Below are positions 1 to 28,637 of a DNA stretch of 64,000 nt, piece after piece. Below the pieces are notes generated by a model, which was not told the origin of the DNA, made no database searches, and was given only the letters and a program-made list of their open reading frames with translations. Made by a program: the position numbers and the translations under genes. Source of the stretch: Bacteroidota bacterium (GTDB lineage Bacteria > Bacteroidota > Bacteroidia > B-17B0 > Aurantibacillaceae); NCBI GenBank assembly GCA_030684395.1, contig JAUXTT010000003.1:62001-126000 (forward strand). The letters are read 5' to 3'. Each line of letters begins with the position of its first letter. Position 1 is the stretch's first letter.

Positions 1-2
1 TG

Positions 3-1625: not shown

Positions 1626-1646
1626 AAATTAATAAAGAATTGTAAA

Positions 1647-4139: not shown

Positions 4140-4253
4140 TATTAAGTTAAAAGTACAAAGTCAAGAGTTAAAAGTGAAAACGGGTGAAATAACTTACATA
4201 CAAAGAAAAGGGGTGCGGCATTTTACTAGTAACATAGCACTAACATAAACAAA

Positions 4254-4991: not shown

Positions 4992-4995
4992 GATT

Positions 4996-10900: not shown

Positions 10901-13900
10901 TTTATAACACCAGCACCAACACCGGAACCAGCACCAACGAATTTTACCTTCCTGACGAGGCCGCTTTTTTAAGCGCAGGTTTTAATAATTGCCTTGGGAA
11001 CTACCTGACAATGAACCAAGCCATTGCTGACCTTGCAGGTCATGTAAATACTGCCTTTGCCACCGCAGGCTTACCGCAATTGCCTGCAAACCCTATGGGA
11101 GACCCTTCATCTAATTATTTTGTACCGGCAAATCAATTCTGCTCACTTTATTCTGCATGCATTACTGATTACATAGCTTACCTCGACGGCCTCAATGCAA
11201 ATTATACCTGCCTCGCAGGAAGCAATCCTGCAGCTTGTAGTAATTACCCTATAAAAACCTATTATGAGTTTGAAACGGCTTATTGCCAGCTTTCCTGTGT
11301 TAATACACCGCATATAGAACCGCTCCCTGCCGAAACATTAAATGTGGAAGATTTTGAGAACGAGTGTATCGCCGCATTTACCGGTGTAGCACAAAGCAAC
11401 GCCTTAACCTTATACAATCAGTATATACTCGATCAAAGAGAACAATTCCGTAATGCGTATATCTCCAAATGTATGGCAGCACGCGAAAACTTTCACACTA
11501 CTTACGACAATCAAAAATACCATTACACACTTTATTATTACGATCAGGGTGGTAACCTCATTAAAACTGTTCCACCTAAGGGCGTGGTGCTGTTTACAGT
11601 ATCAACCGATCTTGCAACAGTAGTAGCACGCCGCAACAATAAGGGGGCAGCACACATTCCTGCACATGCCATGTCCACAGTGTACACCTACAATTCACTA
11701 AACCAACTGGTAAGCCAGATAACACCTGACCAGGATTATTTACAAAGCGATTTTTACTACGATAAACTGGGACGTATGGTTGCCTCACAAAACCCAAAAC
11801 AAAAAGCGGCCAGTCCTGATTTATTAAGCTATACCAAATACGATGGACTGGGAAGAATAACAGAAGTAGGAGAAATGGATCCCGTGGGAACTTATTCAAC
11901 TACAATTAATCCAACAAGCCATAGTGTATTTAATGATATTGGCTTTAACAGTTTGGTGGCTGCAGCAACAAAAAAACAAATTACCAAAACAACATATGAT
12001 TATGCCACACTTCCAATGAGCGATTTTCAGCAGGACCTTTTAAGAGGCCGTGTAACTTCTACCTCCATAGATGCGGATGGAAATGGGACAGCCGAAAACT
12101 CAAGTCATTACAGTTATGATGTGCATGGTAATGTAAAAAGCATGATTAATAGCGATAATTATAACTTAGCGGAGACAATAGGTAATAAACGTACCGATTA
12201 TGAATACGATCTCCTGAGCGGAAAAGTAAATGCCGTACATTATCAGGATGGCATTGCCGACCAATTTCATCATAAATATGAGTATGATGCTGATAACCGT
12301 TTAGTGGCAGCTTATACTTCAACCAACAAACAGGTTTGGGATCGCGATGCTAAATATTTTTATTACCTGCATGGTCCGTTGGCGCGTACGGAGTTAGGGC
12401 AACATAAGGTACAGGGAATGGATTATTATTACACCATACAAGGCTGGATAAAAGGAGTGAACAGCGATGTGCTGAACACTAAGAACGACCCGGGCAGGGA
12501 TGCATACAAAGAACCGGAAACAGGCAATGTACCTTACCAGACTAATGAGCCTGACATGCATACACAAACTGCGGTTGATGCTTATGGCTATACACTTGGA
12601 TATTTTGAGCAAACCAACCAAACAATAAACGGTGTCTCCACAGATTTACGAAAAGATTATGTACCTTTATTAAACGGTACAAGTACAGGTTATTTAACTG
12701 CCGATCCTTATGCCGGCCTTAGTTCAGTATTAACCAATACAACAGCCGTGGCAACCATGCCAAACCTATATAACGGAAATATAAAACACACCACTACTAC
12801 CATAGTTTATCCTACGCTTGCCGATTATTTTGAGCGGGGAATGCCATTGTTACAAGGATATAAATACGATCAGCTCAACCGGATCAGGAACTCATCAGCT
12901 TTTTATGGATATGACCATATAAGTTCAGGAAGTTTGTATGCAATGAATACTTCTGGTGCAGGTTTTAATGTATGGGATCCCGCTATTTCCAACAACTATG
13001 CCACTGATTTTAGTACTTATACCTATGATGCCAATGGAAATATTAAAACCCTTACCCGTAAACAGCAGGATTTCAGCGTACCTGCTTCCTATAGCATAAC
13101 AGCGGCACCCGTAGATAATTATACAGAATACAAATGTATTAACAATGCAACCGGAAGTATTCAGCAGCTTACAGGAGAAGATAACACCAATAGGCTCGAT
13201 CACGTTGCAGGATTTAACAGCCAGACAACAGCAAATTATGAGTACGATGAAATTGGTAACCTCACCAAAGATGTTGCGGAAGGAATTGATATTATAAGTT
13301 GGAATGTTTATGGTAAAATAGAGAAGATCACCAAAACTGGAGTAGCCAATGCTGATGATCTGGAGTTCAGGTACGACTCCAAGGGAAACCGGATCATGAA
13401 AATTAAAAAACCGCGCGATGGAAGTGGTGTTTTAAAATCGCAGAACGACTGGGTTTATACCATTTACCAACGCGATGCACAGGGTAATGTATTAAGCGTT
13501 TATGATATGGTTTATACAAATCCTTCAACCGGAGTATATACCAAAACTCTGAAGCTGAAAGAAAGTGATATTTACGGAAGCTCACGCATAGGTTTAATGG
13601 ACAGAGAAAACGACCAGATTATTTCCGGTGTTACTTTTGATGCAGATATTGACGGAAACGGAGCATTTACAAACATTGCAGTGCATATTGATTCGGAGAC
13701 GGAGCTGGAAAATATCGCTGCGCGTTACTTACCTGTTAGTACACTTACTCATTCTCTGGGTAATAAGCAGTATGAATTAACAAACCATTTAGGCAATGTA
13801 ATGACTGTTGTCTCTGATAAGAAAAAAGCAGTAGACCCCGACACCGATGGAGATGTTGATTATTACGTTGCTGACCTTGTAAGTGCTATGGACTACGGGG

Positions 13901-14880
13901 CGTTCGGAAATATTTTAAGTGGCAGAAACTTTAACTCAAGCTCTGCGAGGTATCAGTTTAATTCTAAAGAATTTGACCCAGAGACAGGCACTCAGGATTA
14001 TGGGGCTCGTATTTATAATCCGAATTTGGGTAGATTTTTAAGTGTTGATGCAATTGCAAATAAATTCCCTTGGTGGTCTCCATATGCCTTTGCTGGTAAT
14101 ACCCCAATTCAAGCACTTGATTTGGATGGTTATGAAATTTTGAATTATAAAACTCCTTTTAGAATAAGAGAAAATTCTGGAGGTGCACAGTTAACAAATA
14201 AATGGGAAATTGCTCGTTCATGGTCTGAGGATTTTTGGGAGTCGCAAGGCATGGTCGAAACTGGGGCGAAATTGTCAACTGGTTTAAAAGGGGCATCTAC
14301 AAATCCGCCATTACCAATGGTATATCCAATTTATCCTGGTACGGGTGATGACCAAGTATATTACACATTGTCGCAAGGCGAACAACAATCATTAGACTTT
14401 TTCGGTGTAGGCAGCCCTCCAGGTTCCATGTCAGACGCTTCCTCTAACCATACAGATGGTATGGCAGCAGACAAAAAGAAAGGAGAAATGTATACTACTA
14501 CAAATAGGAACAAGGCAGCACAAGATAAAACAAGTGGTGTAGCTGGGGCTATTGAATGGCTTTGTACCAAAGTCTTTATGAACTCAAATGTGAAAGGGTC
14601 GATTAATGCAAAATCAGATTTAAATAACATTATTAGAGCTTATGCAGACGCCACAACTTTAGTTGAAAACTTCTATGATTTTAGCACTATTGGAAAAGAC
14701 ATGGGATGGAATGAAAAACAAGTCAATCAATACAAGGCAGATATTATTAACTTTGTGGTTGATGGAAAGCTCCCAAATAACCAAACCAAAGAGTATAATG
14801 CTGCTATTGAAAATAGTGCGATACCAGTTATTACATCATCTAAAGAAGCAGATGCTCAAAAACCTTTAAATTCAAAATAG
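4996..14880 (+). CDS. Giant Rhs-repeat secreted protein with variable C-terminal tail
   Basis: 3294 residues. It has an N-terminal signal segment (CCLLAFFTVLFSARMLA), then a Bacteroidota-type N-terminal region. Residues about 650-2150 are Cys- and Thr-rich with no motif I know. YD/Rhs repeats run from about residue 2175 (YHYTLYYYDQGGNLIKTV, FYYDKLGRMVAS, YDGLGRITEVG) through about 2900. The Rhs-associated core lies at about 2926-3047 (NHLGNVMTVVSD, YQFNSKEFDPETGTQDYGAR, LGRFLSVD, ending DLDGYE). Rhs proteins form a shell that encloses the C-terminal polypeptide. Here about 247 residues follow the DGYE boundary, matching the position of the toxin in polymorphic toxins, but I recognise no catalytic motif in them. 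The codons become AT-richer towards the 3' end. The stop overlaps the next start by one base. Export route unknown; there is no CHU_C or Por sorting domain. Confidence 0.93.
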   Translation: MSKKYFRNTCCLLAFFTVLFSARMLAVDETSSVFARFRNLSTTSKPSVEDNKYGMTTTFTSANTYVKSSTGRVTLKAFDTTAYVPGYTQDVWVMIYAYDFDGILSSNSPMLKKLTVTHDPDHGDVSQDMNTIIIEGAHRLEVKLMDLSSPHTGTITSTDLTTIKNRGNLALELEIETERYYKFTPTSTINFGYVKIFNNDPVSSQVEQIEAYWSFVEGAEEYDLEWTYVDDYGTSTATDWLSASALNVHFRNNSTRVTVTGNSYRIPIVYEHGYLVFRVRAVGRDITNTTLPTLEGSWFPSAESGVLSTAYSGSTPSGTSPYYDAQSVYPIGSAYMKNGTNETLNWQYTATFAEGGKRKQVASFADGSLRSRQMITENNSDQTVIVAESIYDFQGRKAVDILPVPEPDGLNTFTYHPLFNKSTLTGNPGYSKDDFDVDNGSNCVSVPKPLATSAGAGKYYSANNDITGAENFQKYTPNAFGYPFVQTEYMPDNTGRIRAQSGVGDNHYLGTGHETQYDYGTPDQKELDAMFGTDVGYYVHYKKNMVKDANGQTSISYVDMHGRTIATALSGGAPGSMTSDDILTAPTPTVTATYINSKTDDDSINGNSVADDALVFTKDVLIDATTDYTISYNVVPENYTLPCPTYTTTVFCFDCIYDLHISLKDKCGKEWLTETITGVDVDKSPAGYTNPVADGYNALIGKVKLNATTGVYEGFDDVLDSDCGDTVALKHVLNTGSGITIPDLPAGSYTLTKTLTVNQQALDYYTNKYLTSSSCITTLSEFETESETLLNAQNDCGVECAECDQAVTLCESGYKAMLVDVSPGGQYAGFATTNGEIDASAYSLSVLNENNSLPHFPAHYDDHNTGADHYYTPDWKHPIFNGEKSFYRYNNGMIAYVPIDISNPDYQAIAVKITLDNNDVLNYNNHFNSSGDEGTGKFIPVSTCTVSTCSTAPYVYGVRPDQLLTATEFKNAWRASFARELVEYHPEFAYYQFCITQAGNSSHYYPAKYLAATNVAITYSVVPYSTANTNTTVAIPNSKLSSAQTDFTGDWVSTASTFQLHTWTTPSPCSSGSTSAVNLTSDAFDDFLRSITSNSKCELNYFLVNANPSTTPCDAITIAGTVPSYSTSTTTDLIDLDPLFRIEDANPGYNAFIKHQLFGAKSKEMLYHFRQMMLDRLYNLGTSPLGSHPNIGIKEALASHNSTDPQLACQNVYYSPNTSSICVSSETYLNDNQVDKYITYYLGIKQEILKAMADEFAKVPEFNATANQTLYNKSSDYNYFTQLTIPTGSTSLKYVPGYSTSTDSRFWYRKIKGYNKCIGESVWTATSVNFVRASNFILPANYTPAGSLIYDFSGTSSFANQVSYAYNDHYNSNNISYYAPGEVFGFFDKAQACNYDHYSLYVTKTKRFQSGNDYQQSITGIASTNPIDYMDQLTAITDQQYYDQTHLCPITNDFKNLLNDIAKGNLASSTDLGTTTQLPLWVSSYFTNRLYDEIGGSNSNFQFFILNPAVTSTTFSVALTYTTTNSGYTSSTTGTSYTVATNLVSLTIPPACTTAVTSFSDIDEVIAMSNVTWNSGTSTSSFSLTVMAGGLSYIIPGTSYLNLTECSSATAPDICKTTPFANDIQTLMNSLITGGSSLLDHINETSGSGVSLNGSGSVYTGVLTSTILSQLGAGSSACTWNWLKSTTGDTYTISASSGGCSKSIQISLGSSLPTSGSGYVSMYFTGIQKNGTAYEIGFEKVTSSGVTTYTVIPITIETIVGTTTTSVSPMDCDPPANPNCVGIEYDNYTDVDAFLTQLGADQMFAKTSLTPLTNYSAFNASLMSQLPGGTTASYYLRPVYYEVTRGLVFDIVYPVSCDFPNAVTISSNCYSIACSIVFKELGPTTYTSTSVSSIDLNTTNLQAGASNEWNATATFYNIEWMDVPVTIQVCFESKICEDCYTGETPGIVRGGGTLGWSTFSGHSLFNASVYNTSTNTGTSTNEFYLPDEAAFLSAGFNNCLGNYLTMNQAIADLAGHVNTAFATAGLPQLPANPMGDPSSNYFVPANQFCSLYSACITDYIAYLDGLNANYTCLAGSNPAACSNYPIKTYYEFETAYCQLSCVNTPHIEPLPAETLNVEDFENECIAAFTGVAQSNALTLYNQYILDQREQFRNAYISKCMAARENFHTTYDNQKYHYTLYYYDQGGNLIKTVPPKGVVLFTVSTDLATVVARRNNKGAAHIPAHAMSTVYTYNSLNQLVSQITPDQDYLQSDFYYDKLGRMVASQNPKQKAASPDLLSYTKYDGLGRITEVGEMDPVGTYSTTINPTSHSVFNDIGFNSLVAAATKKQITKTTYDYATLPMSDFQQDLLRGRVTSTSIDADGNGTAENSSHYSYDVHGNVKSMINSDNYNLAETIGNKRTDYEYDLLSGKVNAVHYQDGIADQFHHKYEYDADNRLVAAYTSTNKQVWDRDAKYFYYLHGPLARTELGQHKVQGMDYYYTIQGWIKGVNSDVLNTKNDPGRDAYKEPETGNVPYQTNEPDMHTQTAVDAYGYTLGYFEQTNQTINGVSTDLRKDYVPLLNGTSTGYLTADPYAGLSSVLTNTTAVATMPNLYNGNIKHTTTTIVYPTLADYFERGMPLLQGYKYDQLNRIRNSSAFYGYDHISSGSLYAMNTSGAGFNVWDPAISNNYATDFSTYTYDANGNIKTLTRKQQDFSVPASYSITAAPVDNYTEYKCINNATGSIQQLTGEDNTNRLDHVAGFNSQTTANYEYDEIGNLTKDVAEGIDIISWNVYGKIEKITKTGVANADDLEFRYDSKGNRIMKIKKPRDGSGVLKSQNDWVYTIYQRDAQGNVLSVYDMVYTNPSTGVYTKTLKLKESDIYGSSRIGLMDRENDQIISGVTFDADIDGNGAFTNIAVHIDSETELENIAARYLPVSTLTHSLGNKQYELTNHLGNVMTVVSDKKKAVDPDTDGDVDYYVADLVSAMDYGAFGNILSGRNFNSSSARYQFNSKEFDPETGTQDYGARIYNPNLGRFLSVDAIANKFPWWSPYAFAGNTPIQALDLDGYEILNYKTPFRIRENSGGAQLTNKWEIARSWSEDFWESQGMVETGAKLSTGLKGASTNPPLPMVYPIYPGTGDDQVYYTLSQGEQQSLDFFGVGSPPGSMSDASSNHTDGMAADKKKGEMYTTTNRNKAAQDKTSGVAGAIEWLCTKVFMNSNVKGSINAKSDLNNIIRAYADATTLVENFYDFSTIGKDMGWNEKQVNQYKADIINFVVDGKLPNNQTKEYNAAIENSAIPVITSSKEADAQKPLNSK

Positions 14881-15368
14881 TGAAAATAGTTAGAAATATA
14901 TTTAGTGCAACGATTTTATTTATATCCATTATGTTTATTCATTCATGTAAAACAACGTTCCCAAAAACGGAAACTGATTGTGTGAATGAAGCAAAGTACA
15001 TTTTGGACATAACAGCTAAACCAAATTATTCTGAAAAGCTCGAAGTCTTGAAAAAATATGAAGCTTTTAAGGATTATGGAACTAGCGATTATGAAAAAAC
15101 TTATATAAAACTAAATGAATATCTCGTTGTACATCAATGGCAGAACATGACTATTGAAATTAAAAAAGACACATCTAAGTTGAATTTTGAAGGGGCTTTT
15201 AATGCAATATCATATTTGGAAATTAGTTTTCTTGATGCAAAAAAAGAGGACGAATCGAAAAGCATTTGTGTATTTAGATATTCAATAGCAGATAATGAAG
15301 ACCATTATGTTTTATCTTACTTTAAACATAATTTAAATGCAAAAGTAAAACCAGTTTTACCAAAGTGA
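14880..15368 (+). CDS. Small lipoprotein, candidate immunity protein for the Rhs tail
   Basis: 162 residues from a GTG whose first base is the last base of the Rhs TAG stop, so translation is probably coupled. The N-terminus is a lipoprotein signal (IFSATILFISIMFIHSCKTT, Cys at about residue 23). The remainder is a soluble, Lys/Glu-rich domain with no family that I recognise. The DNA is strikingly AT-rich: a hand count over 14881-14940 gives 12 G/C of 60, against 23 of 60 at 11701-11760 inside the Rhs gene. Position directly after an Rhs C-terminal tail, small size and atypical composition are the usual marks of an immunity gene. Lipidation would place it in an envelope membrane, which would fit a toxin acting in the periplasm or envelope. 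This role is inferred, not shown. Confidence 0.75.
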   Translation: MKIVRNIFSATILFISIMFIHSCKTTFPKTETDCVNEAKYILDITAKPNYSEKLEVLKKYEAFKDYGTSDYEKTYIKLNEYLVVHQWQNMTIEIKKDTSKLNFEGAFNAISYLEISFLDAKKEDESKSICVFRYSIADNEDHYVLSYFKHNLNAKVKPVLPK

Positions 15369-15451: not shown

Positions 15452-16998
15452 AGCTTAAAAGCGCAATTTTTTTAGTTCCAATCAAGTCCTATAATTTCAA
15501 AAAGAACGGTTTTTTATTTTTTTATTCGATTCGATTTTGGAGTTTCAAGGAAAAATTCATGTGTTTTTGAATCAGGCATACACACTTACCATTACACACT
15601 TTGTAAACTCCATTTTTTGTTTTCAGAACGATTCGTTTAAACTTTTAACCAAGCATCGGCACATCTTTTAGGATGTGTGGAATGCATGGTTTCAAACAGT
15701 TGTATTCCTTGTTTTTTTGTATTCGGAGTTTTGCACTCTCTTTATACAAAACTTTGTATTCATCCTCATTTGGTTCGTTTCCAAAATAAAAATCATTCGG
15801 AGTTCCACAATTTAAAAACCTGCGGTTACGGTTGTTGTATGTTGTTACACCTTCCTCAACAGCAGTAATTAAGTCTTCTAAAGTAACAAAAGATTTCCGT
15901 AAAAGAATATCATTTTTAAAATATTTTATTACCGATTCAATCATACTATTGCTGTAAGGAGCTTTGTCAGTTTGAGCAATCAGGTGCTTGATGTTCGGTT
16001 GTGTGGCAATGAACTCTTTAACAAGACCTTTATTTTCAGAACCATCATCGGTTAAATAATCAAAATACACATCCTCCAGATTATTGTCGGCAATAGCTTT
16101 TTTTAAGGTATGCAAGGACTCCTTGCTTTTACTGCTATAACTAACGTGGGCAGCTAAAATTCTTCTCGAATAATTATCGCAAATCAAATAAATCCAAACT
16201 TTCTTACCATTTAATTTATACATCGTTTTGTCGGCATGTATTAATTCATTGACTTGATGAGCTCTTCTACCCACCGGTTTTTCTTTTTTATATTCTCTTT
16301 TCCGTTTTTCATCTTCGCCCAAAGCAATAGCTATTTCACAAAACTTGGGGAAACTTACAAAAAGAATTCTATCGTTTTTTAACCTTGCAAACAAATCGCT
16401 TAGAGAAAAATCTTTATACTCAGGAATATTAAAGTAACGCCTTTGAAGATCTACAACAAAATCGTTGTCGAATTGATTTAAAGCGGAATTTAAACAGGTA
16501 TTGCCGGGAGAACGCCTGCAATTGATTTTATTTTTTAGTGTGCTGTATGATTGCCTGCTATACCCAACGGTAGCGAGCAATTCATCCATTGCCACCAATG
16601 GCTTTATTTTTTCAATCATGTTTACAAACTCAGTACGTTGTTTTTTGAACTGCTTTTCCAATGATTGGTTTTCACAAACGATGTTCAGAAAAAAATCCAG
16701 CGTATGTAAAACAGCATCTTTGCAGGAATTTTGCAATTGTTTATTAAAAAAGGCAATTTCTTTCAAACCATCTTTTTCAGCTAATTGCTCAATCGCTTCC
16801 CTTCCTCCGTTCATCCAACTGTGTGCTGTAGATTTAGGAGCTGTAGATTTTTCGGTTCCTTTAATGTGTTTGTACTTTTCAAGAACGGTGTACTTCCTGT
16901 ACTCTTTTTTGGCTTGTTTCATAGCAAAATAAAAAATCCACAAGGTTACGAAAGCAGAAAATATAACATTTCAATAATTAGCTCTACAGCTTAAAAGC
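15452..16998 (-). mobile_element. Insertion-sequence-like element (boundaries tentative)
   Basis: A single DDE transposase gene lies between an Rhs locus and the broken tail of another gene, which is what an IS insertion looks like. The 11-base word agcttaaaagc occurs in the same orientation at 15452-15462 and 16988-16998 and could mark the outer limits or a target duplication, giving an element of about 1.5 kb. I could not find convincing terminal inverted repeats, so the ends are provisional. Confidence 0.4.
15645..16922 (-). CDS. IS transposase with integrase (rve, DDE) core
   Basis: About 425 residues from the ATG at 16922 (MKQAKKEYRKY); an in-frame ATG seven codons upstream is possible but gives a poorer N-terminus. 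The C-terminal half is an rve/DDE domain: first Asp in LIHADKTMYKLNGKKVW, second in LTDDGSEN, and Glu in APYSNSMIESVIKYFKND, with about 35 residues between the second Asp and the Glu. The ending GVTTYNNRNRRF resembles the typical YN..RPH region of IS3/IS481-like enzymes. The N-terminal 130 residues are basic and helical, with a possible helix-turn-helix at GYSRQSYSTLKNK. It cuts and joins DNA during transposition. It looks intact. I cannot assign the IS family with certainty; IS3-like is the nearest guess. Confidence 0.88.
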   Translation of the reverse strand: MKQAKKEYRKYTVLEKYKHIKGTEKSTAPKSTAHSWMNGGREAIEQLAEKDGLKEIAFFNKQLQNSCKDAVLHTLDFFLNIVCENQSLEKQFKKQRTEFVNMIEKIKPLVAMDELLATVGYSRQSYSTLKNKINCRRSPGNTCLNSALNQFDNDFVVDLQRRYFNIPEYKDFSLSDLFARLKNDRILFVSFPKFCEIAIALGEDEKRKREYKKEKPVGRRAHQVNELIHADKTMYKLNGKKVWIYLICDNYSRRILAAHVSYSSKSKESLHTLKKAIADNNLEDVYFDYLTDDGSENKGLVKEFIATQPNIKHLIAQTDKAPYSNSMIESVIKYFKNDILLRKSFVTLEDLITAVEEGVTTYNNRNRRFLNCGTPNDFYFGNEPNEDEYKVLYKESAKLRIQKNKEYNCLKPCIPHILKDVPMLG

Positions 16999-17491: not shown

Positions 17492-18928
17492 TTGGAAACC
17501 GCAGACCATATATTGTTAAGTCTCGAACAGCAGCAATTGCTCAATAGCGATCAGGCATGGCATTTTGGAATTGTGCCTAAAGCTGTGAGTGCGGCTAACA
17601 TGGAGTTTTATATCGATCCTGAAAAAATGCATCCACACCTGACCGATGAGCTGGAAGTATTGTTTGGGAAGCGCATTGTGCTGGAGAAGTCGGACACGGT
17701 GCTTATAAAAAAAACACTGGCAAAGTACTACCGCAAAAATGCCGATGCTGCCAAAGCATACCGAAAAAACATAAATGTAAAATCGGATGAATTCCTACAC
17801 TCATTGGTATCAGAGGCAAAAGAGCTGGGTAGTAGTGACATCCATATTGAAATTTATGACGACAAATGTCGGATCCGTTTCCGGATTGACGGGATGCTGA
17901 TTGAGAGACATGCACTTTCCAAATCGGAATACCCAACGGCAGTAAATAAGATCAAAATCTCTGCCAATTGCGAGATCTCCGAAAAACGTTTGCCACAGGA
18001 TGGACGTATTCAGTTGTTTTTGAATGGAGGCAAAATTGATATTCGTGTTTCTATTTTACCAACCCTGCACGGAGAAAAAATAGTACTTCGTTTATTGAGC
18101 AATGATACGGCAAACCTGGATATAGCAAAGCTTGGTTTTTCCGACATACAATTAAAAAATTATTTAGAAGGTGTAAAAAAACCGCATGGGATTATCCTCA
18201 TCAGCGGTCCTACAGGTTCAGGTAAAACCACCACCCTGTATGCAACGCTAAAGATGATCAATAAAACCACTAACAATATCCTTACCATTGAAGACCCGGT
18301 GGAGTATACATTGGAAGGAATTAATCAGGTGCAATTAAAGGAAGATATTGGCTTGAGTTTTGCCGCAGCCCTGCGTACTTTCTTAAGGCAGGATCCTGAT
18401 GTAATTATGTTGGGTGAGATCCGTGATGGTGAAACAGCACAAATGGCAATACGTGCATCGCTTACAGGGCATTTAGTGTTATCAACTATACACACCAATT
18501 CGGCCTGGGGAACAATAGCACGTTTGGCTGATATGGGTGTACCTCCATTTTTAATAGCAAGCACACTTAACCTTAGTGTTGCGCAACGATTGGTAAGATT
18601 ACTTTGCCCTGTATGCAGAGAGAAAAAGAAATTTGAATCTTATTATTTACCACCGGCTTATGTAGCTCCTAAAGAAATCAAGGAAGTAGCGCACGCAGTT
18701 GGTTGCGAGCACTGCCATTTTACAGGCTACAAAGGACGAAAAGCATTATACGAAGTAATCCCAATTGATATGCATTTAGCAGAATCAATTAAAAACAACA
18801 GCTTTACTGTTGGAGAATATTTACAATCAAAAAATATACGTTCCTTATCGGAGAATGCATTTGAGTTGCTATTAAGCGGAGTAACCTCTCCCGAAGAAGT
18901 GTACTCACTTTTAGTGAATGAATATTAA
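17492..18928 (+). CDS. gspE: GspE/PilB-type secretion ATPase
   Basis: 478 residues from a TTG start; the upstream frame closes at 17468-17470 and the N-terminal domain (QAWHFGIVPKAVSAANMEFY) is needed, so a later ATG at 17600 would truncate it. It is a hexameric ATPase that would power assembly of a type II secretion pseudopilus or type IV pilus from the cytoplasmic face. Walker A GPTGSGKTT lies at about 239-247, the Asp box at TIEDPVEY, Walker B in DPDVIMLGEIRD at about 301-312, and the His box at STIHTNSA. The zinc tetracysteine motif is intact: C372-x2-C375 and C405-x2-C408. It is first in a compact operon with a secretin. No PilT-like retraction ATPase, GspF platform protein or pilin is in the window. 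Confidence 0.95.
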   Translation: METADHILLSLEQQQLLNSDQAWHFGIVPKAVSAANMEFYIDPEKMHPHLTDELEVLFGKRIVLEKSDTVLIKKTLAKYYRKNADAAKAYRKNINVKSDEFLHSLVSEAKELGSSDIHIEIYDDKCRIRFRIDGMLIERHALSKSEYPTAVNKIKISANCEISEKRLPQDGRIQLFLNGGKIDIRVSILPTLHGEKIVLRLLSNDTANLDIAKLGFSDIQLKNYLEGVKKPHGIILISGPTGSGKTTTLYATLKMINKTTNNILTIEDPVEYTLEGINQVQLKEDIGLSFAAALRTFLRQDPDVIMLGEIRDGETAQMAIRASLTGHLVLSTIHTNSAWGTIARLADMGVPPFLIASTLNLSVAQRLVRLLCPVCREKKKFESYYLPPAYVAPKEIKEVAHAVGCEHCHFTGYKGRKALYEVIPIDMHLAESIKNNSFTVGEYLQSKNIRSLSENAFELLLSGVTSPEEVYSLLVNEY

Positions 18929-18939
18929 ATAAAACCTAT

Positions 18940-20838
18940 ATGAACAAATTAATTTTAGTAATCACACTTTTCTTTTCTGTTGCTGCAACGGCACAGGACA
19001 GGTTTACTGTTTTAGAAGAAAAACTAAATCAGGCCAAAAAGAATTCCGCGGGTTTGGAGGACAAAATTCAAATGTCGGTGAACGCAATGACCATGCAGGA
19101 TTTTTTGCAGGGTATAGCAATCAATCACAATCTGAATGTAACGGTTGATCCGGGTATTGATATAAAAGTAACCAACAACTTTAAGGATGTTACCGCTATC
19201 GATATTTTTATGTTTGTATGTAAGCGTTATGATATGGACATTACCTTCATAGGACCTATCATGAACTTCTCGAAGTATGTGCCTCCTCCGGTGGTGGTTA
19301 AAGAAGTAAAAAACAACACAAAAAAAATCAAAGTCTCTTTCGATTCCATTGCAGGCTTGTTGAGTTTTGAGCTAAACAACGATAGTTTGGTTTTGGTAAC
19401 AAGGGAAATTACACGGGTATCAGGTAAAAACATTGTGTATGCCCCTGATTTAGGAAACAAAATGTTAAATGGATTTGTACAGGCAGTTCCGTTTAATACC
19501 GCAATAGATAAGCTGGCCTTCGGGAATGATTTAAAAATTACACTAACTGCTGATAATTTTTATACCATCGAAAAAAACGTGAAAGAAGTTACGAAGAATG
19601 GGAGTAATGCAACGAATAGTAATTTTAGTAACAATGCCGCCAATAACAAAAACGGCCTTAACATCAAAGTAGAAAATGGTCTCATCAGCCTTGATGTGCA
19701 GAATACCCCAACTAATGAAGTACTGGCAGCGGTTTCTAATTTAATGGGGTACGATTATTTTTTGTTCAACGAATTAAAAGGAAATTCAACTATTAGCGTT
19801 AAGGAAGCCAATTACGAAGACTTCTTAAAATACCTTTTCAACGGTACGGATTATACATACAAAAAAGATAATGCTATGTATTTATTTGGCGACAGAAATT
19901 TGGAAGGCCTGCGTGCCAGCAAATTGATTACTTTAAAGAACCGTACTTCTGATAAGATCCTTGATTTTATACCCGCTGATCTGAAAAAAGGAGTTGACCT
20001 TAAAACCTTTGAAGATCTTAATGGTATTATTGTGAGCGGATCTCAGCCACGCATCAACGAGATTGAAGCCTTCCTTCGTCAATTAGACCTGGTTGTTCCA
20101 AATGTGTATATAGAAGTAATTATTGTAGATGTACGTAAAAGCAATACTTTCTCGGCAGGTATAACCGCGGGCTTGGGAACGGATCCTACTAAAACAGGTG
20201 GAACGGTTATTCCATTTGATTTCACATTGGGCTCACAAAGCATCAATAATATTATTACCGGTATCAACGGCATCAGTGGTGTAAACCTCGGGCAAGTGAC
20301 ACCAAATTTTTACGTAAAGCTAAAAGCACTGGAAGAGCAAGGTGTTTTAAAACTTCGTTCAACGCCACAATTGGCAACATTAAACGGGCACAAAGCAGAA
20401 TTGAGTATTGGCCAAACAGAATATTATTTAGAGATCCAAAATAACCTGGTGCAAAACCAAAATCAATCTAATATTTTGCAAAGCCAGCAATACAAAGCGG
20501 TAAATGCCGATTTATCAGTAAGTATACTGCCACAGATTTCTGCTGATGAACAAATTACAATGGATATACATGTGAAGCAATCGAGTTTCACCGAACGTAT
20601 CTCTAACACGGCACCTCCCGGAACCATCAATCGCGATTTCAAATCACTCATCCGTGTAAAAAATGGTGATATGATAATGCTTGGCGGGTTGGAAGAAAAC
20701 AGTAAGAATGAATCGGGAAGTGGTTTACCATGGGTATCAAGAGTTCCGGTGCTAAAATGGTTTTTCGGAAGCCGTACAAAAAAGAAATCGGAGAACAAGT
20801 TGACTATTTTTATTAAGCCCGTAATCATATACAGTTAA
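18940..20838 (+). CDS. gspD: Secretin (GspD/PilQ family)
   Basis: 632 residues with a signal peptide (MNKLILVITLFFSVAATAQ). The N-terminal part has N0/STN-like (MTMQDFLQGIAINHNLNVTV) and N1-type modules (LQVLV-like ILDFIPADLKKGVDLKTFED, GSQPRINEIEAFLRQLD). The secretin barrel domain begins near residue 385 (VYIEVIIVDVRKSNTFSAG), continues through LKLRSTPQLATLNGHKA at about 470 and closes with VKNGDMIMLGGL (about 572) and VPVLKWFFGSRTKKK (about 600). It would form the outer-membrane channel of the machine. An Asn-rich linker (residues about 220-245) separates the domains. It follows gspE by 11 bp and the next gene starts 1 bp after its stop. Confidence 0.94.
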   Translation: MNKLILVITLFFSVAATAQDRFTVLEEKLNQAKKNSAGLEDKIQMSVNAMTMQDFLQGIAINHNLNVTVDPGIDIKVTNNFKDVTAIDIFMFVCKRYDMDITFIGPIMNFSKYVPPPVVVKEVKNNTKKIKVSFDSIAGLLSFELNNDSLVLVTREITRVSGKNIVYAPDLGNKMLNGFVQAVPFNTAIDKLAFGNDLKITLTADNFYTIEKNVKEVTKNGSNATNSNFSNNAANNKNGLNIKVENGLISLDVQNTPTNEVLAAVSNLMGYDYFLFNELKGNSTISVKEANYEDFLKYLFNGTDYTYKKDNAMYLFGDRNLEGLRASKLITLKNRTSDKILDFIPADLKKGVDLKTFEDLNGIIVSGSQPRINEIEAFLRQLDLVVPNVYIEVIIVDVRKSNTFSAGITAGLGTDPTKTGGTVIPFDFTLGSQSINNIITGINGISGVNLGQVTPNFYVKLKALEEQGVLKLRSTPQLATLNGHKAELSIGQTEYYLEIQNNLVQNQNQSNILQSQQYKAVNADLSVSILPQISADEQITMDIHVKQSSFTERISNTAPPGTINRDFKSLIRVKNGDMIMLGGLEENSKNESGSGLPWVSRVPVLKWFFGSRTKKKSENKLTIFIKPVIIYS

Positions 20839-20839
20839 T

Positions 20840-22075
20840 ATGAGTAAGGTAGATTTTTTTAAGGATCTGGTTTTTAAAACAAATGTGGTGGCAGGGCTCG
20901 AAATTGTAGCACTGTCAGATTCCTCGTTTGTATACAATATTCAGGTGCTCGAAAAAAAAGGAAAAAACCTGGAGCCTAAAAACAGCTATACGCAAATCAA
21001 AGATAAATCTCAGGTTTTTAAAACGCTGAAAGAGCTGAAGTGCCCCGTAATCATTAATTACCAGGGTAAAGGCACTATACAAAGAGCATTTCAGGATTCG
21101 ATAAAAGAGAACTTTACGGATGCACTCAATCGTTTAATTCCTTCTGCAAATGAAAATGAATTCCACATTCAAATATATAATAGTAACACCGGTAATTCAT
21201 TTGCATGCATTTTACGTAAACAGCAATTAAATGAATTACAAAAAGAGTTTGAAGAAAAAAAGATCGACATAATTGGAGTACTGCTTGGTAATTATCATTT
21301 GGAATTGCTACTTCCAATTATGAATCAAGGTGGCTCAATGAACCGAATTGTAACTGCTGAGCATAGTTTATTGTTTGAAGACGGAGGTTTAAAGGAAATT
21401 ACAGCGCGTGCAGATGGGGCAATTGGAGATTCCATTGAATTGGGAAAAACTACAATTACCGCAGATCTATTGCCGGCACTGGCAGCAGCTATGTATTATT
21501 TTATTCCATTACCTAATATTTTAAACAATAATAAAGAAGTTGATTTTTTAAATAAAGAATATTCCAACAAAAAAGCATTTGTTACACTTTCGCGCATACT
21601 CATTGTTTTTTTACTCCTATTAACATTGGGGAATTTCTTTTGGTTCAATTCCTTTTTTAAACAACAGGCTGATACAGAAGCACAGTTATCCGTGTTTGAA
21701 AGTTCAATGAATGCCTACGAACAATTAAATCAACAACTAAAGAGCAAGGAAGATTTTATGCAGAAATCGGGATTGCAGAATGGTTCTAAAATCTCCTATT
21801 ACACGGATAGAGCTTTATATGATATGCCGGAAGAAATTCAACTGAATTATTTTTATGTTGCTCCTACCGAAAAGCGACCGGAAAAAGATTCGGTAATGCG
21901 CTTTGATTCGAAAAAATTACTAATAAAAGGTGTGTGTAGTAAAAGTATTATCCTGAATGAATGGTTGAAATTATTGAAAACAAAGGATTTTGTACAGGAT
22001 GTGATATTGGAAAATTACAATCAGGAAATGGATAACCGAAACGGTAAATTTGATGTATTGGTAAAATTAAAATAG
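20840..22075 (+). CDS. GspL-like (PilM/PilN-type) assembly protein
   Basis: 411 residues. The N-terminal 245 residues are cytoplasmic, look like a degenerate actin-like PilM/GspL domain (GLEIVALSDSSFVYNIQVLE at the start, EHSLLFEDGGLKEITARADG later), and have no membrane segment. One transmembrane helix follows at about 250-272 (ILIVFLLLLTLGNFFWF), then a coiled coil and a periplasmic ferredoxin-like domain (KLLIKGVCSKSIILNEWLKL, KDFVQDVILENY) as in PilN/GspL. The single-chain layout is like GspL, where PilM and PilN are fused. It would link the ATPase to the secretin. Identification rests on architecture and operon position rather than strong sequence identity. Confidence 0.78.
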   Translation: MSKVDFFKDLVFKTNVVAGLEIVALSDSSFVYNIQVLEKKGKNLEPKNSYTQIKDKSQVFKTLKELKCPVIINYQGKGTIQRAFQDSIKENFTDALNRLIPSANENEFHIQIYNSNTGNSFACILRKQQLNELQKEFEEKKIDIIGVLLGNYHLELLLPIMNQGGSMNRIVTAEHSLLFEDGGLKEITARADGAIGDSIELGKTTITADLLPALAAAMYYFIPLPNILNNNKEVDFLNKEYSNKKAFVTLSRILIVFLLLLTLGNFFWFNSFFKQQADTEAQLSVFESSMNAYEQLNQQLKSKEDFMQKSGLQNGSKISYYTDRALYDMPEEIQLNYFYVAPTEKRPEKDSVMRFDSKKLLIKGVCSKSIILNEWLKLLKTKDFVQDVILENYNQEMDNRNGKFDVLVKLK

Positions 22076-22609
22076 ATGTTTAAAGATCTTACATATCAGA
22101 AAAAGTTGAAACTATTGGCACCTTTGGCAATAGTGGCTTTGCTGTTGGTGTATTTTCTCGGTATCAAAAAAACAATAAGCCTCCGTTCAGAAATAAAAGA
22201 AAAACAGGAAAAGCTCATTCAGGCAAAAGATATTGATACGAAAGTAAGTTTGATCCGCAGTAAGCTCAAAAAAATAGATAACCTGATAGGCTCTGATATG
22301 GATAGCAGTAGCAAAGTTATAGATGTAATTCTTGAAGACATTACTACTTATTGCAGTGAACAAGGGTGCACACTCCGCGATATTCCTTTGATGCACGAAG
22401 CTTCCGACAACAACTTTGATATTGAAACATACTTTATCACAGTAGAAGGTTCGTACAAACAATTACTGAATTTGGTATATTTACTTGAGCAAAAGAAAAA
22501 AAGCGGTGGAAGACTTTCTTCCTGCCTGCTGTATAGTAAAAAGAACAATGCAACAAAAAAACTAAGCCTGGAAGCAACATTATACATACAACAATACAAC
22601 AAAAAATAA
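22076..22609 (+). CDS. GspM/PilO-like inner-membrane assembly protein
   Basis: 177 residues, starting immediately after the preceding TAG with no spacer. A single transmembrane helix at about 13-30 (LAPLAIVALLLVYFLGI) is followed by a coiled coil (LRSEIKEKQEKLIQAK) and a compact periplasmic domain (TYFITVEGSYKQLLNLVYLL, LSLEATLYI), the standard PilO/GspM plan. It would pair with the preceding GspL-like protein in the inner-membrane ring. Family assignment is from topology, size and order in the operon. Confidence 0.72.
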   Translation: MFKDLTYQKKLKLLAPLAIVALLLVYFLGIKKTISLRSEIKEKQEKLIQAKDIDTKVSLIRSKLKKIDNLIGSDMDSSSKVIDVILEDITTYCSEQGCTLRDIPLMHEASDNNFDIETYFITVEGSYKQLLNLVYLLEQKKKSGGRLSSCLLYSKKNNATKKLSLEATLYIQQYNKK

Positions 22610-22610
22610 A

Positions 22611-23558
22611 ATGAAACCACATAAATTCATACTTGTTCTTTTTATCATTATGATAGCATTTTCCGCGTGCCAGAAAGACATTATAGTTAAAGATATTGAG
22701 AACGAAACAGTAACAGCATTATCTCCACCTGATGGCTACAATACACCTAACAACAGCATTACCTTTTGGTGGGAAAAAGTTGACGGAGCTGAAAAATACA
22801 ACATTCAAATTGTATCACCTTCTTTCAGTAATATACAACAATTGATAACAGATAGCAGTGTTACAACTGATAAATTCACCAAAGTATTAACTCCAGGAAC
22901 TTATCAGTGGAGGGTAAGGGCAACCAACAATGGAGGTAATACAGCTTGGACGACAAGAACACTTACCATTGATACGAGCAGCAATTTAACTTATTCGGCA
23001 GTAATATTATTATCACCGGCTGATTCATTTTATACCAGTGCGACTTCCGCATATTTATCCTGGTCTCCGGTCAGCAATGCAACAGTTTATTCTTTAAGTA
23101 TTCCCGGAGTCATAAATAGCACCAGCTACAGTACAACAGCTGCAACTATAAGTTTCCCTACAGAAGGAACTTATACATGGTCGGTGCGTGCAGAAAATTC
23201 TTTTAGTTTTAGTCCCTATTCATCGCGCAAAATTTTTATCGACAGAACGGCACCAACATCGTCACCAACATTAAACTATCCGATTTCAACAACACCGACG
23301 GTACCGGCCGACACATTAATGAGTTGGACAACCATAAGCGAATCGTACAAGGATGTAGTTTTGATTTCAGATGTTTCCGATTTTTCCAATACTATAAAGA
23401 TGGATACTGTTAGCAGCGGATCCGGTAGCGTACGAACCTATTCAATTAGTAATATAAGCAACCCGAGTGGCAACACTTATCATTGGAAAGTAAAAAGTAT
23501 TGATAGAGCGGGCAATGTAGGTAATTACGGTACATCAAAAAGTTTCAGTGTCCAGTAG
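22611..23558 (+). CDS. Lipoprotein with fibronectin type III-like repeats
   Basis: 315 residues starting one base after the previous stop. The N-terminus is a lipoprotein signal (ILVLFIIMIAFSACQKD, Cys at about residue 20). Three FN3-like beta sandwiches follow: ITFWWEKVDGAEKYNIQIVS with TYQWRVRATNN at about 45-120, YLSWSPVSNATVYSLSI with YTWSVRAENS at about 135-215, and LMSWTTISESYKDVVLISD with TYHWKVKSIDRAGNVG at about 225-310. Such a protein is not a standard part of type II secretion or type IV pilus operons. It might act as a pilotin-like or surface accessory protein. Its 3' end overlaps the next gene by 11 bp, so it belongs to the operon. Confidence 0.82.
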   Translation: MKPHKFILVLFIIMIAFSACQKDIIVKDIENETVTALSPPDGYNTPNNSITFWWEKVDGAEKYNIQIVSPSFSNIQQLITDSSVTTDKFTKVLTPGTYQWRVRATNNGGNTAWTTRTLTIDTSSNLTYSAVILLSPADSFYTSATSAYLSWSPVSNATVYSLSIPGVINSTSYSTTAATISFPTEGTYTWSVRAENSFSFSPYSSRKIFIDRTAPTSSPTLNYPISTTPTVPADTLMSWTTISESYKDVVLISDVSDFSNTIKMDTVSSGSGSVRTYSISNISNPSGNTYHWKVKSIDRAGNVGNYGTSKSFSVQ

Positions 23559-24084
23559 CGTATTAAAAAATAAAAAATCAACTTACTTTCTGTTGCCTGT
23601 TACATTAGGCATCTGGGCATTTATTGGCTATAAAGTATATCAGTATATGAATGCTGAGGATGAAGAAATTGCACTCACGGAAAACATTGCACCTCTTAAC
23701 GCAGAAAAGTTAACATTGGATACATTTGCTATCTTCAATAATTACCGTGATCCATTTTTAGGGAACGACGGGAAAGAAATGGAAGGAGTAAAAAAAACTA
23801 CCGGTTCTTATCCATCCGGTACAAATGGGAATGCTAATAAAAACCCAAAGAAAAACACTACCCCTGTACCACCAATAAATGCCAATGCGGGTTGGCCAAA
23901 AATCAGTTACAATGGGATGATGGTGAATGAGTCGAATAAACAGGCTATGGGCTTTCTTTCAGTTGACGGTGTATCACAGCGTGTAAAGGTCGGGGATAAG
24001 ATCAACGACCTGAAGATTGTTTCTTTTGACCAGAATGGAATAACCATTCAGAGAGGGAAAGAGAAAAAGGTTATTGCGAAGTGA
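23548..24084 (+). CDS. GspC/PilP-like periplasmic coupling protein
   Basis: 178 residues from a GTG lying inside the preceding gene; no ATG is available before the membrane segment. One transmembrane helix at about 13-31 (YFLLPVTLGIWAFIGYKVY), then a DPFLG motif (YRDPFLGNDG), an Asn/Pro/Lys-rich linker, and a C-terminal HR-like beta domain at about 117-178 (WPKISYNGMMVNESNKQAMG, VKVGDKINDLKIVSFDQNGI). This is the architecture of GspC and PilP, which connect the inner-membrane platform to the secretin N-domains. It is the last gene of the operon. Confidence 0.75.
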   Translation: MSSSVLKNKKSTYFLLPVTLGIWAFIGYKVYQYMNAEDEEIALTENIAPLNAEKLTLDTFAIFNNYRDPFLGNDGKEMEGVKKTTGSYPSGTNGNANKNPKKNTTPVPPINANAGWPKISYNGMMVNESNKQAMGFLSVDGVSQRVKVGDKINDLKIVSFDQNGITIQRGKEKKVIAK

Positions 24085-25162: not shown

Positions 25163-25193
25163 CTTGTGCAGGTGTTAAAATTTTCTAAATTTG
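25163..25193 (+). promoter_or_regulatory. Promoter of the first adhesin gene
   Basis: CTTG (25163-25166) and TAAATTTG (25186-25193) are separated by exactly 19 bases, matching the Bacteroidota TTTG-N19-TAnnTTTG consensus at all but one position. The -7 box ends 24 bp before the ATG at 25218. Confidence 0.72.
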
Positions 25194-25217
25194 TGTGCTT
25201 TAAACCGTTGTAGTTCT

Positions 25218-28200: not shown

Positions 28201-28637
28201 ATTCGTGGGTTTTTGGAGATGGAAACATAAGCACTGATATAAACCCAACCAATGTTTATTTTTCTAACGGCACTTTTAATGTAACGCATGTAGTAAGCGA
28301 TGATATTGGTTGTTCGGATACAGCAACAGCTACGGTTATTATTACCAGCGTTTCAAATGAAATTACTCAGTTAATCCCAAATGCCATTTCTCCAAACGGA
28401 GACGGGAAAAACGACGAGTGGAAACTTCCGTTTGTTGATCTCTTGTATCCAAAAGCTGCTGTAGAGATCTATAATGTGTGGGGACAAAAAGTATTTGAAT
28501 CGGAAGGATATAAATCGCCATGGAATGGAACCTTTAAAGGTGAGCTTTTACCAATGGGCAATTATTATTATATTTTAAATCTTAACGATCCAAAACAACC
28601 GGAAATTTTTAAAGGCGCTATTTTATTGGTAAGATAA
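25218..28637 (+). CDS. T9SS-secreted adhesin: IgGFc-like N-domain, PKD repeats, CHU_C
   Basis: 1139 residues from ATG 25218 ([20 protein letters not shown]); a longer frame from 25191 would precede the signal peptide and overlap the promoter. The mature N-terminus [15 protein letters not shown] begins an IgGFc-binding-like domain to about residue 440 ([52 protein letters not shown]). Four Ig-like modules of about 85-90 residues follow ([20 protein letters not shown] and relatives), then three PKD domains from about 800 ([37 protein letters not shown]). A C-terminal CHU_C/T9SS type B sorting domain ([28 protein letters not shown]) covers about 1060-1139. It should be exported by T9SS and attached at the surface with help from the adjacent PorP/SprF protein. 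Confidence 0.93.

What the first reader, a model, noticed from the sequence alone, without database searches (positions are those of the whole stretch)
17492..24084. Six-gene secretin operon with ATPase and alignment complex but no pilin, peptidase or GspF
The order is GspE, secretin, GspL-like, GspM-like, FN3 lipoprotein, GspC-like, closed by unrelated genes on both sides. Type II secretion and type IV pilus systems need a platform protein (GspF/PilC), pseudopilins and a prepilin peptidase, and none is here. Either the rest is elsewhere, or this is a reduced, Bacteroidota-specific secretin machine. The FN3 lipoprotein in the middle is not a standard component and could replace a pilotin or form a surface part.
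Basis: partly seen in the sequence, partly recalled or inferred. Interest (0 to 1): 0.7.

Follow-up and report, generated by a model that had tools for sequence, protein, structure and literature searches.

The report
Split Bacteroidota type II-like secretion system
The six genes are one half of a complete, already described kind of protein-export machine whose other half lies about 28 kilobases away, and the odd lipoprotein in the middle turns out to be a constant part of that machine that an earlier gene list left out.

Summary
The operon is real (17492-24084: E, D, L, M, X, C), but the machine is not reduced. The platform protein, pseudopilins and a prepilin peptidase lie 28-33 kb upstream on the same contig (C13:46357-51336). 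The set is the Bacteroidetes "T2SS" of Cytophaga hutchinsonii (Wang 2017), which Denise 2019 places apart from other T2SS. Elsewhere O and E are neighbours (80 of 84 loci); here a cassette of giant genes and an integrase gene lie between them.

New here: the FN3 lipoprotein X sat in 29 of 29 relatives' loci. Among 395 class genomes the secretin was in 63, X in 59, both in 57. X precedes C in 86 of 87 loci. The published component table skips the gene at its position. Its acidic post-cysteine motif resembles a surface-export signal. A 417-aa protein (K) in the tip-pseudopilin place resembles ComZ in predicted fold, and a MORN-repeat protein (Y) usually precedes K.

A giant protein family co-occurs with the secretin (55 of 63 versus 52 of 332 genomes) and lies near it (12 copies within 20 kb, 0.73 expected): candidate cargo, noticed after the fact, untested.

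Verdict: new member of a known system; moderate interest.

The parts
17492..18928 (+). E: assembly ATPase (GspE/PilB family), the only T2SSE-family gene found in the genome
   Evidence: Pfam T2SSE 7.5e-130; single genome hit; Walker A and two CxxC motifs; NCBIfam GspE 482.9 bits against cut-off 630
18940..20838 (+). D: secretin, the only one found in the genome; ends right after the secretin domain, no C-terminal S-domain
   Evidence: Pfam Secretin 4.2e-37, residues 463-630 of 632; single genome hit; 8-9 residues from the start of the FIKP-type motif to the end in all 91 family members that scored over 700 bits and carry the motif, duplicates included
20840..22075 (+). L: GspL/PilN-like inner-membrane alignment protein
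   Evidence: PilN in 14 of 27 family members at E up to 1, best 5.2e-5; the window copy itself has no significant match
22076..22609 (+). M: GspM/PilO-like inner-membrane alignment protein
   Evidence: profile matches PilO 3jc8, E 4.4e-4; Pfam PilO E 0.013, below cut-off
22611..23558 (+). X: FN3 lipoprotein, near-constant component of this system missing from the published table; Cys20 then QKDIIVKDI
   Evidence: present in 29 of 29 relatives' loci; in 57 of 63 secretin genomes; next to C in 86 of 87 loci; FN3 model, mean pLDDT 91.5
23548..24084 (+). C: GspC-like protein, N-terminal membrane anchor and C-terminal homology-region-like domain
   Evidence: T2SSC in 15 of 27 members at E up to 1, best 1.9e-7; GspC 2lnv E 0.0095
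15645..16943 (-). integrase-type (probable IS) gene between the giant-gene cassette and E; part of what separates the halves
   Evidence: Pfam rve, E 5.7e-7, 30.2 of 32.6 bits
1..1625 (+). C-terminal part of a 1942-aa giant protein that starts at C13:57797 (family called RHS-N here; no RHS domain was found in it); candidate cargo
   Evidence: extent; no T9SS sorting domain found; linkage to the secretin
1647..4139 (+). 830-aa protein with PKD domain, same cassette
   Evidence: homologue in the same cassette of G001
4996..14880 (+). 3294-aa RHS-repeat protein with RHS core near its C-terminus, same cassette; candidate cargo
   Evidence: Rhs_assc_core 9e-15, RHS_repeat

Best explanation
The operon encodes the envelope-spanning half of a complete Bacteroidota-type type II-like secretion system, a type IV filament machine of the Cytophaga kind. 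It supplies ATPase E, secretin D, alignment proteins L, M and C, and the lipoprotein X. The other half (platform F, pseudopilins G, I, J, tip-type protein K, peptidase O, MORN protein Y) lies at C13:46357-51336. The two halves are parts of one ancestral arrangement, G-O-E-D-L-M-X-C plus Y-K-I-J-F, separated in this genome between O and E. Shown here: presence, single copy of E, D and F, order and conservation. Inferred from known relatives: O cuts the prepilins; E and F build a short G pseudopilus with an I-J-K tip; the tip pushes periplasmic cargo through D; L, M and C couple the platform to D. Inferred with less certainty: X is an outer-membrane lipoprotein working with C and D and probably displayed on the outside at the secretin mouth (about 0.45), rather than a periplasmic pilotin (about 0.3). 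The cargo is unknown; the giant RHS-N proteins are the best candidates by linkage (about 0.3).
For: F, G, I, J, K, O, Y found on the same contig. One E, D and F gene found in the genome. O and its homologues keep D20, G88 and D91 in 18 of 18; Peptidase_A24 matches 16 of 18 at E up to 1, best 4.4e-8. The same gene set and order across 99 non-redundant loci: O-E adjacent in 80 of 84, E-D 96 of 97, D-L 97 of 98, X-C 86 of 87. X and D co-occur: 57 both, 2 X only, 6 D only, 330 neither of 395. Ten loci without X in view had it elsewhere in the same genome, next to C, in 10 of 10. D lacks an S-domain. X has 2 or more acidic residues at +2..+6 in 76% of 75 versus 5% of 97 other predicted lipoproteins of the loci (same pattern for both). 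K's model matches the tip pilin ComZ, Foldseek E 1.5e-4. The system is known from C. hutchinsonii (PMC5553014).
Against: None of E, D, F, G reaches its NCBIfam T2SS equivalog cut-off, and Denise 2019 places the group with T4aP and away from T2SS, so 'type II' may be a wrong name. A defined cargo is not reported in what I read: in Wang 2017 the extracellular protein profile hardly changed in mutants. The genome search with Peptidase_A24 found nothing at E 1e-3; O is below the family cut-off. The window's own L and C copies match nothing significant. K has no Pfam prepilin match and I is below that cut-off. No X was found near D in two genomes with the system (G155, G273). X's membrane side is untested, and 0 of 75 X has the exact C. 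canimorsus signal C-x-K-(D/E)2. Of 107 genomes with RHS-N, 52 lack the secretin.
Confidence: 0.88

Rival explanations
1. A reduced, pilin-less, Bacteroidota-specific secretin machine made only of the six genes.
For: The window holds only these six genes; Pfam Peptidase_A24 finds no hit in the genome at E 1e-3.
Against: F, G, I, J, K and O lie on the same contig; elsewhere O and E are adjacent in 80 of 84 loci.
Confidence: 0.02
2. A canonical T2SS, a direct orthologue of the proteobacterial Gsp system.
For: Same component types including a GspC-like protein and a single PilN-matching GspL-like protein; GspE is the best-scoring ATPase model, just ahead of PilB; no second T2SSE-family ATPase found and hence no PilT; mutant phenotype in cellulose use.
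Against: E 482.9 of 630, D 143 of 351, F 236 of 424, G 28.9 of 89 bits: no NCBIfam T2SS equivalog cut-off met. G scores best with the Myxococcus PilA model, itself far below cut-off. Published trees place it outside T2SS.
Confidence: 0.1
3. A type IV pilus or DNA-uptake machine rather than a protein exporter, with K as a tip DNA receptor like ComZ.
For: K's best Foldseek hit is ComZ (E 1.5e-4); in VIA it is the only one of 50 listed entries that reaches into the helix (Z 11.9, rmsd 13.9). ComZ is proposed as a tip-associated DNA receptor (PMC6561018, passages). The group clusters with T4aP.
Against: No retraction ATPase found. Mutants change surface proteins, beta-glucosidase activity and cellulose adhesion. 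F. johnsoniae, which has the cluster (PMC5553014 Table 2), was not naturally competent in one study (start of the abstract of PMC7965970 in a listing). The solenoid also resembles ice-binding proteins, so the fold gives no function.
Confidence: 0.15
4. X is a periplasm-facing pilotin or assembly lipoprotein for the secretin, not a surface part.
For: Conserved lipoprotein in the secretin operon; the post-Cys segment and first FN3 domain are the best conserved parts, and two genomes keep only that part; in one genome X directly follows D.
Against: D has no C-terminal S-domain, the usual pilotin site (recalled); the fold hits listed are FN3 and Ig-like chains, not a pilotin; acidic post-Cys motif; X is tied to C rather than to D (86 of 87 versus 1 of 88 adjacent).
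Confidence: 0.3
5. The linkage of giant RHS-N genes to the system reflects a shared genomic hot spot, genome size or how the family was picked, not cargo.
For: 52 of 107 RHS-N genomes lack the secretin; only 12 of 99 loci show RHS-N within the stretch held; relatedness was not corrected; the family was noticed in these very loci and its query and profile were built from copies beside the system.
Against: 12 copies within 20 kb against 0.73 expected; a Skp-like gene and the small lipoprotein gene precede RHS-N in 6 of those 12 loci; no T9SS tag on the cassette proteins tested.
Confidence: 0.6

Closest known systems
Putative T2SS of Cytophaga hutchinsonii (CHU_3191-3202) and the clusters listed with it in F. 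johnsoniae, P. heparinus and O. splanchnicus (Wang 2017, PMC5553014; abstract, passages and sections 19 and 24 seen)
   Same: Same components; by published gene numbers the same order G, O, E, D, two genes, a skipped gene, then a further gene in C. hutchinsonii; divergent A24 peptidase; C/L/M found only by remote homology. The named Sporocytophaga locus L117 shows G-O-E-D-L-M-X-C-K-I-J-F.
   Different: Here the two halves are 28 kb apart. The component table skips the gene at the X position (CHU_3192, Fjoh_0621, Phep_1106, Odosp_1523 by number). It lists the first gene after D as T2S-C and the last as T2S-M, whereas the family profiles here read L, M, X, C. The sequences of those four organisms were not examined here.
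Canonical T2SS (Gsp/Pul/Xcp)
   Same: Component types E, D, F, G, minor pseudopilins, O, C, L, M; no PilT found.
   Different: Curated equivalog cut-offs not met; secretin without S-domain; beta-solenoid K; added FN3 lipoprotein X and MORN protein Y; published trees separate them.
Type IVa pilus (PilB/C/D/M/N/O/P/Q)
   Same: PilN- and PilO-like proteins; G scores best with a PilA model, far below its cut-off.
   Different: GspC-like protein instead of the lipoprotein PilP (recalled), no retraction ATPase found.
Thermus ComZ tip pilin (6qvi; PMC6561018, passages)
   Same: Long N-terminal helix plus beta-solenoid predicted in K; ComZ's solenoid is closest to FfIBP, which is also among K's top matches.
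   Different: Only about 10% identity, TM-score 0.23; DNA binding not implied.
Secretin-like complexes at F. johnsoniae outer-membrane tube tips (PMC8455137, passages)
   Same: Same phylum; the authors suggest a GspD-like secretin; an extracellular density is seen that the Legionella T2SS lacks.
   Different: The identity of the extracellular density is unknown; a link to X is my inference.

Membership tests
Cytophaga-type Bacteroidetes T2SS | E, D, F, G, O and C/L/M-like genes in one genome | tested here: met
Cytophaga-type Bacteroidetes T2SS | gene order G-O and E-D-L-M-X-C shared with named relatives | tested here: met
   in this genome O and E are separated
Cytophaga-type Bacteroidetes T2SS | affects surface proteins or polymer use | not testable with these tools
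   reported for C. hutchinsonii
Canonical T2SS | E, D, F, G meet NCBIfam T2SS equivalog cut-offs | tested here: not met
   E 482.9/630, D 143/351, F 236/424, G 28.9/89 bits
Canonical T2SS | GspC-like protein with homology-region domain | tested here: met
   family level: 15 of 27 members at E up to 1, best 1.9e-7, 2lnv E 0.0095; window copy alone not matched
Canonical T2SS | groups with T2SS in trees | not tested
   Denise 2019 reports the opposite
Canonical T2SS | exports folded periplasmic proteins | not testable with these tools
   needs mutants and proteomics
Type IVa pilus | separate retraction ATPase PilT | tested here: not met
   one T2SSE-family gene found in a 98.93% complete genome
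A24 prepilin peptidase (O) | two catalytic-type aspartates, second in a GxGD-like motif | tested here: met
   D20, G88, D91 invariant in 18 of 18
A24 prepilin peptidase (O) | Pfam Peptidase_A24 gathering cut-off | tested here: not met
   this genome's copy 20.2 of 26.5 bits; 16 of 18 family members match at E up to 1, best 4.4e-8
Secretin pilotin (for X) | partner secretin carries a C-terminal S-domain | tested here: not met
   all 91 D proteins over 700 bits with the FIKP-type motif end 8-9 residues from its start
Surface-exposed lipoprotein (for X) | exact C. canimorsus signal C-x-K-(D/E)2 | tested here: not met
   0 of 75 whose lipobox the pattern found; 30 of 105 not scored
Surface-exposed lipoprotein (for X) | acidic residues just after the cysteine, as in F. 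johnsoniae SDDFE | tested here: inconclusive
   76% of 75 X versus 5% of 97 others have 2 or more at +2..+6; localisation untested
ComZ-like tip pilin (for K) | pilin helix with large beta-solenoid domain | tested here: met
   model pLDDT 88.8, ComZ chains are Foldseek ranks 1-3, Z 11.9 but rmsd 13.9 over 275 residues; prepilin leader of K judged by eye only

The most novel reading that the evidence does not exclude
This is not a T2SS but a separate secretion machine that arose from type IV pili in Bacteroidota. It has a surface-displayed FN3 lipoprotein (X) docked to the secretin-GspC axis as an exit port, a ComZ-like beta-solenoid tip on the pseudopilus (K), and the giant RHS-N proteins, with a Skp-like chaperone of their own, as cargo.
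Probability: 0.15. Interest if true: 0.85.

Novelty: new member of a known kind. Interest (0 to 1): 0.5.

Why it matters
For the Bacteroidota "T2SS" my searches found one mutant study (Wang 2017), no defined cargo and an uncertain place in the type IV filament family. A near-constant lipoprotein missing from that paper's component table, a ComZ-like tip protein, a MORN partner and a linked giant-protein family give named genes to delete and named cargo to look for. That makes two open questions testable in ordinary lab strains: how this secretin reaches or opens the outer membrane without a classical pilotin site, and what the machine exports.

Tried and rejected
Reduced-machine reading: rejected after genome searches. 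The peptidase looked absent by Pfam genome search. It was found by reading the gene next to the G gene and testing its motifs.

Sequence search of PDB with the L family gave nothing useful, with O nothing, with K nothing significant. The X fold search listed FN3 and Ig-like chains only, so it says nothing about a partner. VIA rows for K are mostly ice-binding and other beta-helices, a shared fold only.

X threshold: one search found 232 of 395 genomes at E 1e-3, many by generic FN3 repeats. I set E 1e-20 after seeing the list (59 genomes kept, 173 dropped). D-only genomes: G159, G173, G425 end at a contig edge inside the operon; G317 has a lone divergent secretin; G155 and G273 show no X near D. 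X-only genomes: G227 has a shortened L and no D on its contig; in G184 the X, C, a Y-like (by eye) and K genes sit near a contig edge.

One search kept the best 80 of at least 530 loci, so the named set is a capped one; one search dropped 10 of these 80 as duplicates of relatives. Lipoprotein test: one search used one pattern for X and background. One search repeated it with a stricter background (31, 3% with two acids), but its X side used a fallback pattern that itself asks for an acid, so its X figures (73% of 93) are biased and not relied on.

RHS-N: noticed after the fact in these loci. Query and profile come from copies beside the system, this genome's own copy is counted in the 50-kb figure, in two genomes only 14 candidates were scored, and relatedness and genome size are not corrected. 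Positions were partly listed, so linkage was computed on the 120-genome set. The label RHS-N is mine: the 1942-aa protein has no RHS match. Labels I, J, K, Y and signal peptides are also by eye or recall. No phylogenetic tree was built.

Literature: searches for CHU_3192 (none), T2SS with FN3 lipoprotein (none), Bacteroidota T2SS with secretin, F. johnsoniae T2SS, RHS with T2SS and Bacteroidetes type IV filament. The titles and abstract starts listed name neither X nor RHS cargo of this system; I did not open most of these papers, and subscription papers are not held.
Full report
CHECK. E is a GspE/PilB ATPase and D a secretin. E carries a Walker A motif and two CxxC pairs. The third, fourth and sixth proteins have no significant match on their own. 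As families of 27 homologues each they do: at E up to 1, PilN matches 14 of 27 L (best 5.2e-5) and T2SSC 15 of 27 C (best 1.9e-7). The M profile matches solved PilO (3jc8, E 4.4e-4) and the C profile solved GspC (2lnv, E 0.0095). The fifth, X, is a lipoprotein by its lipobox, with Cys20 invariant in 27 of 27, and FN3-like domains modelled at mean pLDDT 91.5.

THE REST OF THE MACHINE. The window is C13:62001-126000 of a 44-contig genome, 98.93% complete. GspF lies at C13:46357-47502. Upstream of it on the same strand are two small prepilin-like genes, one clear (N_methyl 4.2e-7) and one below the cut-off, and a 417-aa protein, K, whose prepilin-like N-terminus is seen by eye only. Divergently at C13:50415-51336 lie a G-type pseudopilin and a 158-aa membrane protein, O. 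O scores below the Peptidase_A24 cut-off (20.2 of 26.5 bits), and the genome search for that family found nothing at E 1e-3. Across 18 aligned proteins D20, G88 and D91 are invariant, and 16 of 18 match Peptidase_A24 at E up to 1, best 4.4e-8. I take O as the prepilin peptidase. One gene each was found for E, D and F, and no second T2SSE-family gene, so no PilT.

GENE ORDER ELSEWHERE. I compared 29 loci from relatives and 70 named loci (the best 80 of at least 530 found, minus 10 duplicates). The same genes recur as (Y)-K-I-J-F and G-O-E-D-L-M-X-C. Neighbour counts over the 99 loci: G-O 81 of 83, O-E 80 of 84, E-D 96 of 97, D-L 97 of 98, L-M 95 of 97, M-X 80 of 88, X-C 86 of 87, K-I 54 of 55, I-J 55 of 55. 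O and E are thus normally adjacent. Here 28 kb lie between them: a response regulator, a cassette of giant genes and an integrase-type gene. Of two further genomes of the genus, G001 has the secretin and G002 (66% complete) does not. In G001 a matching cassette and response regulator also lie upstream of E, and none of F, G, I, J, K, O was found in C10:1-80000; I did not look further.

X IS A COMPONENT. X was found in 29 of 29 relatives' loci. Of 70 named loci 60 have it in view; the other 10 have it elsewhere in the genome, 10 of 10, beside C. In 395 genomes drawn from the class, D (E 1e-10) was found in 63 and X (E 1e-20, cut chosen afterwards) in 59; 57 have both, 2 only X, 6 only D, 330 neither. 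Three of the six D-only genomes end at a contig edge and one has a lone divergent secretin; two (G155, G273) show no X near D. X is close to 315 aa in most; two genomes keep only the post-cysteine segment and the first FN3 domain, which are also the best conserved parts. Wang 2017 lists components by gene number and skips the gene at this position in C. hutchinsonii, F. johnsoniae, P. heparinus and O. splanchnicus (sections read). That these skipped genes are X is inferred from order in named relatives such as Sporocytophaga L117 and Pedobacter L131. I did not examine those four genomes. By the same reasoning that paper's table labels C, L, M should read L, M, C.

WHAT X MAY DO. D ends 8-9 residues from the start of its FIKP-type motif in all 91 proteins scoring over 700 bits that carry the motif, so there is no S-domain for a classical pilotin. 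X has two or more acidic residues at +2..+6 in 76% of 75 proteins, against 5% of 97 other predicted lipoproteins of the same loci, with one pattern used for both. The X proteins are related, and 30 of 105 were not scored. Surface lipoproteins of Bacteroidetes carry such signals (QKDDE, SDDDD, SDDFE; PMC5080379, passages), though none of 75 X proteins has the exact C-x-K-(D/E)2 form. Secretin-like particles in F. johnsoniae show an extracellular density that the Legionella T2SS lacks (PMC8455137, passages). I therefore lean to a surface part at the secretin mouth (0.45) over a periplasmic pilotin (0.3). This is inference.

K AND Y. K is predicted as a long N-terminal helix carrying a beta-solenoid (pLDDT 88.8). 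Its top three Foldseek hits are the three chains of Thermus ComZ (E 1.5e-4 for the best, TM-score 0.23). VIA-align gives Z 11.9 over 275 residues for ComZ, but with rmsd 13.9, and slightly higher Z for some ice-binding proteins including FfIBP, the closest relative of ComZ's own solenoid. ComZ's pilin domain resembles GspK (both from PMC6561018, passages). K thus sits beside I and J like GspK, with a ComZ-like head. Y lies immediately upstream of K on the same strand in 48 of 54 loci having both. It has a MORN repeat match in a relative's copy (1.3e-8) and only a weak one in part of this genome's copy.

POSSIBLE CARGO. Between the halves lie giant proteins, an OmpH/Skp-like protein (2.2e-13) and small lipoproteins. 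Only the 3294-aa protein has RHS matches. The N-terminal 450 residues of the 1942-aa protein define a family that I call RHS-N. It is in 28 of 30 secretin genomes against 10 of 90 others among 120 relatives, and in 55 of 63 against 52 of 332 in the class. In 28 genomes with both, 12 of 83 copies lie within 20 kb of D, 0.73 expected; 17 within 50 kb, 1.82 expected. In 12 of 99 loci RHS-N is in view, and in 6 of these the Skp-like and lipoprotein genes stand before it. T9SS sorting domains were found in three other proteins of this contig, but in none of the cassette proteins tested. Against: the link was noticed in these loci before it was tested, query and profile were taken from copies beside the system, nearly half of the RHS-N genomes lack the secretin, and relatedness and genome size are uncorrected.

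KNOWN OR NEW. The system is known: Wang 2017 showed that D, F and G mutants of C. hutchinsonii are impaired in cellulose use, while extracellular proteins hardly changed. Denise 2019 found that the "so-called T2SS of Bacteroidetes" groups with T4aP and may be a separate secretion system (passages and first part of the discussion). My NCBIfam scores agree: no T2SS equivalog cut-off is met by E, D, F or G. So I do not file it as a canonical T2SS; it works like one and belongs to the Cytophaga-type group. New here, as far as my searches show, are the X, K and Y descriptions, the L/M/C order, the split and the RHS-N linkage.

Noticed in passing
C13:52280-63625 and window 1-15368: Cassette of giant proteins (1177, 1942, 830 and 3294 aa, the last with an RHS core) with a Skp-like protein and small lipoproteins; homologues of much of it in the same order next to the same secretion genes in G001.
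   Followed up: partly
C13:49594-50421 (minus), beside K: MORN-type protein Y with signal peptide (by eye) and a lysine-rich tail; its family lies immediately upstream of K in 48 of 54 loci that have both.
   Followed up: partly
C13:51333-52001 (minus); G001 C10:28427-29083: LuxR-type response regulator next to the secretion genes in both genomes of this genus in which the secretin was found; possible regulator.
   Followed up: no
window 25191-28637: 1148-aa protein with T9SS type B sorting domain, so the genome encodes T9SS-type cargo as well.
   Followed up: no
L003:8886-10469 (+) and L003:13814-16192 (-): Two proteins with T9SS type A sorting domains close to the F-J-I-K genes, the second with a weak metalloproteinase match.
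   Followed up: no
L172 (G317 C8:220000-238000): A lone divergent secretin with none of the other system genes found in 18 kb.
   Followed up: no
G061 C1:229-2118 and C1:5624293-5626182: A second secretin match in pieces near the start of this contig, besides the whole one near its end; possibly overlapping ends of a circular chromosome rather than a real second copy.
   Followed up: no
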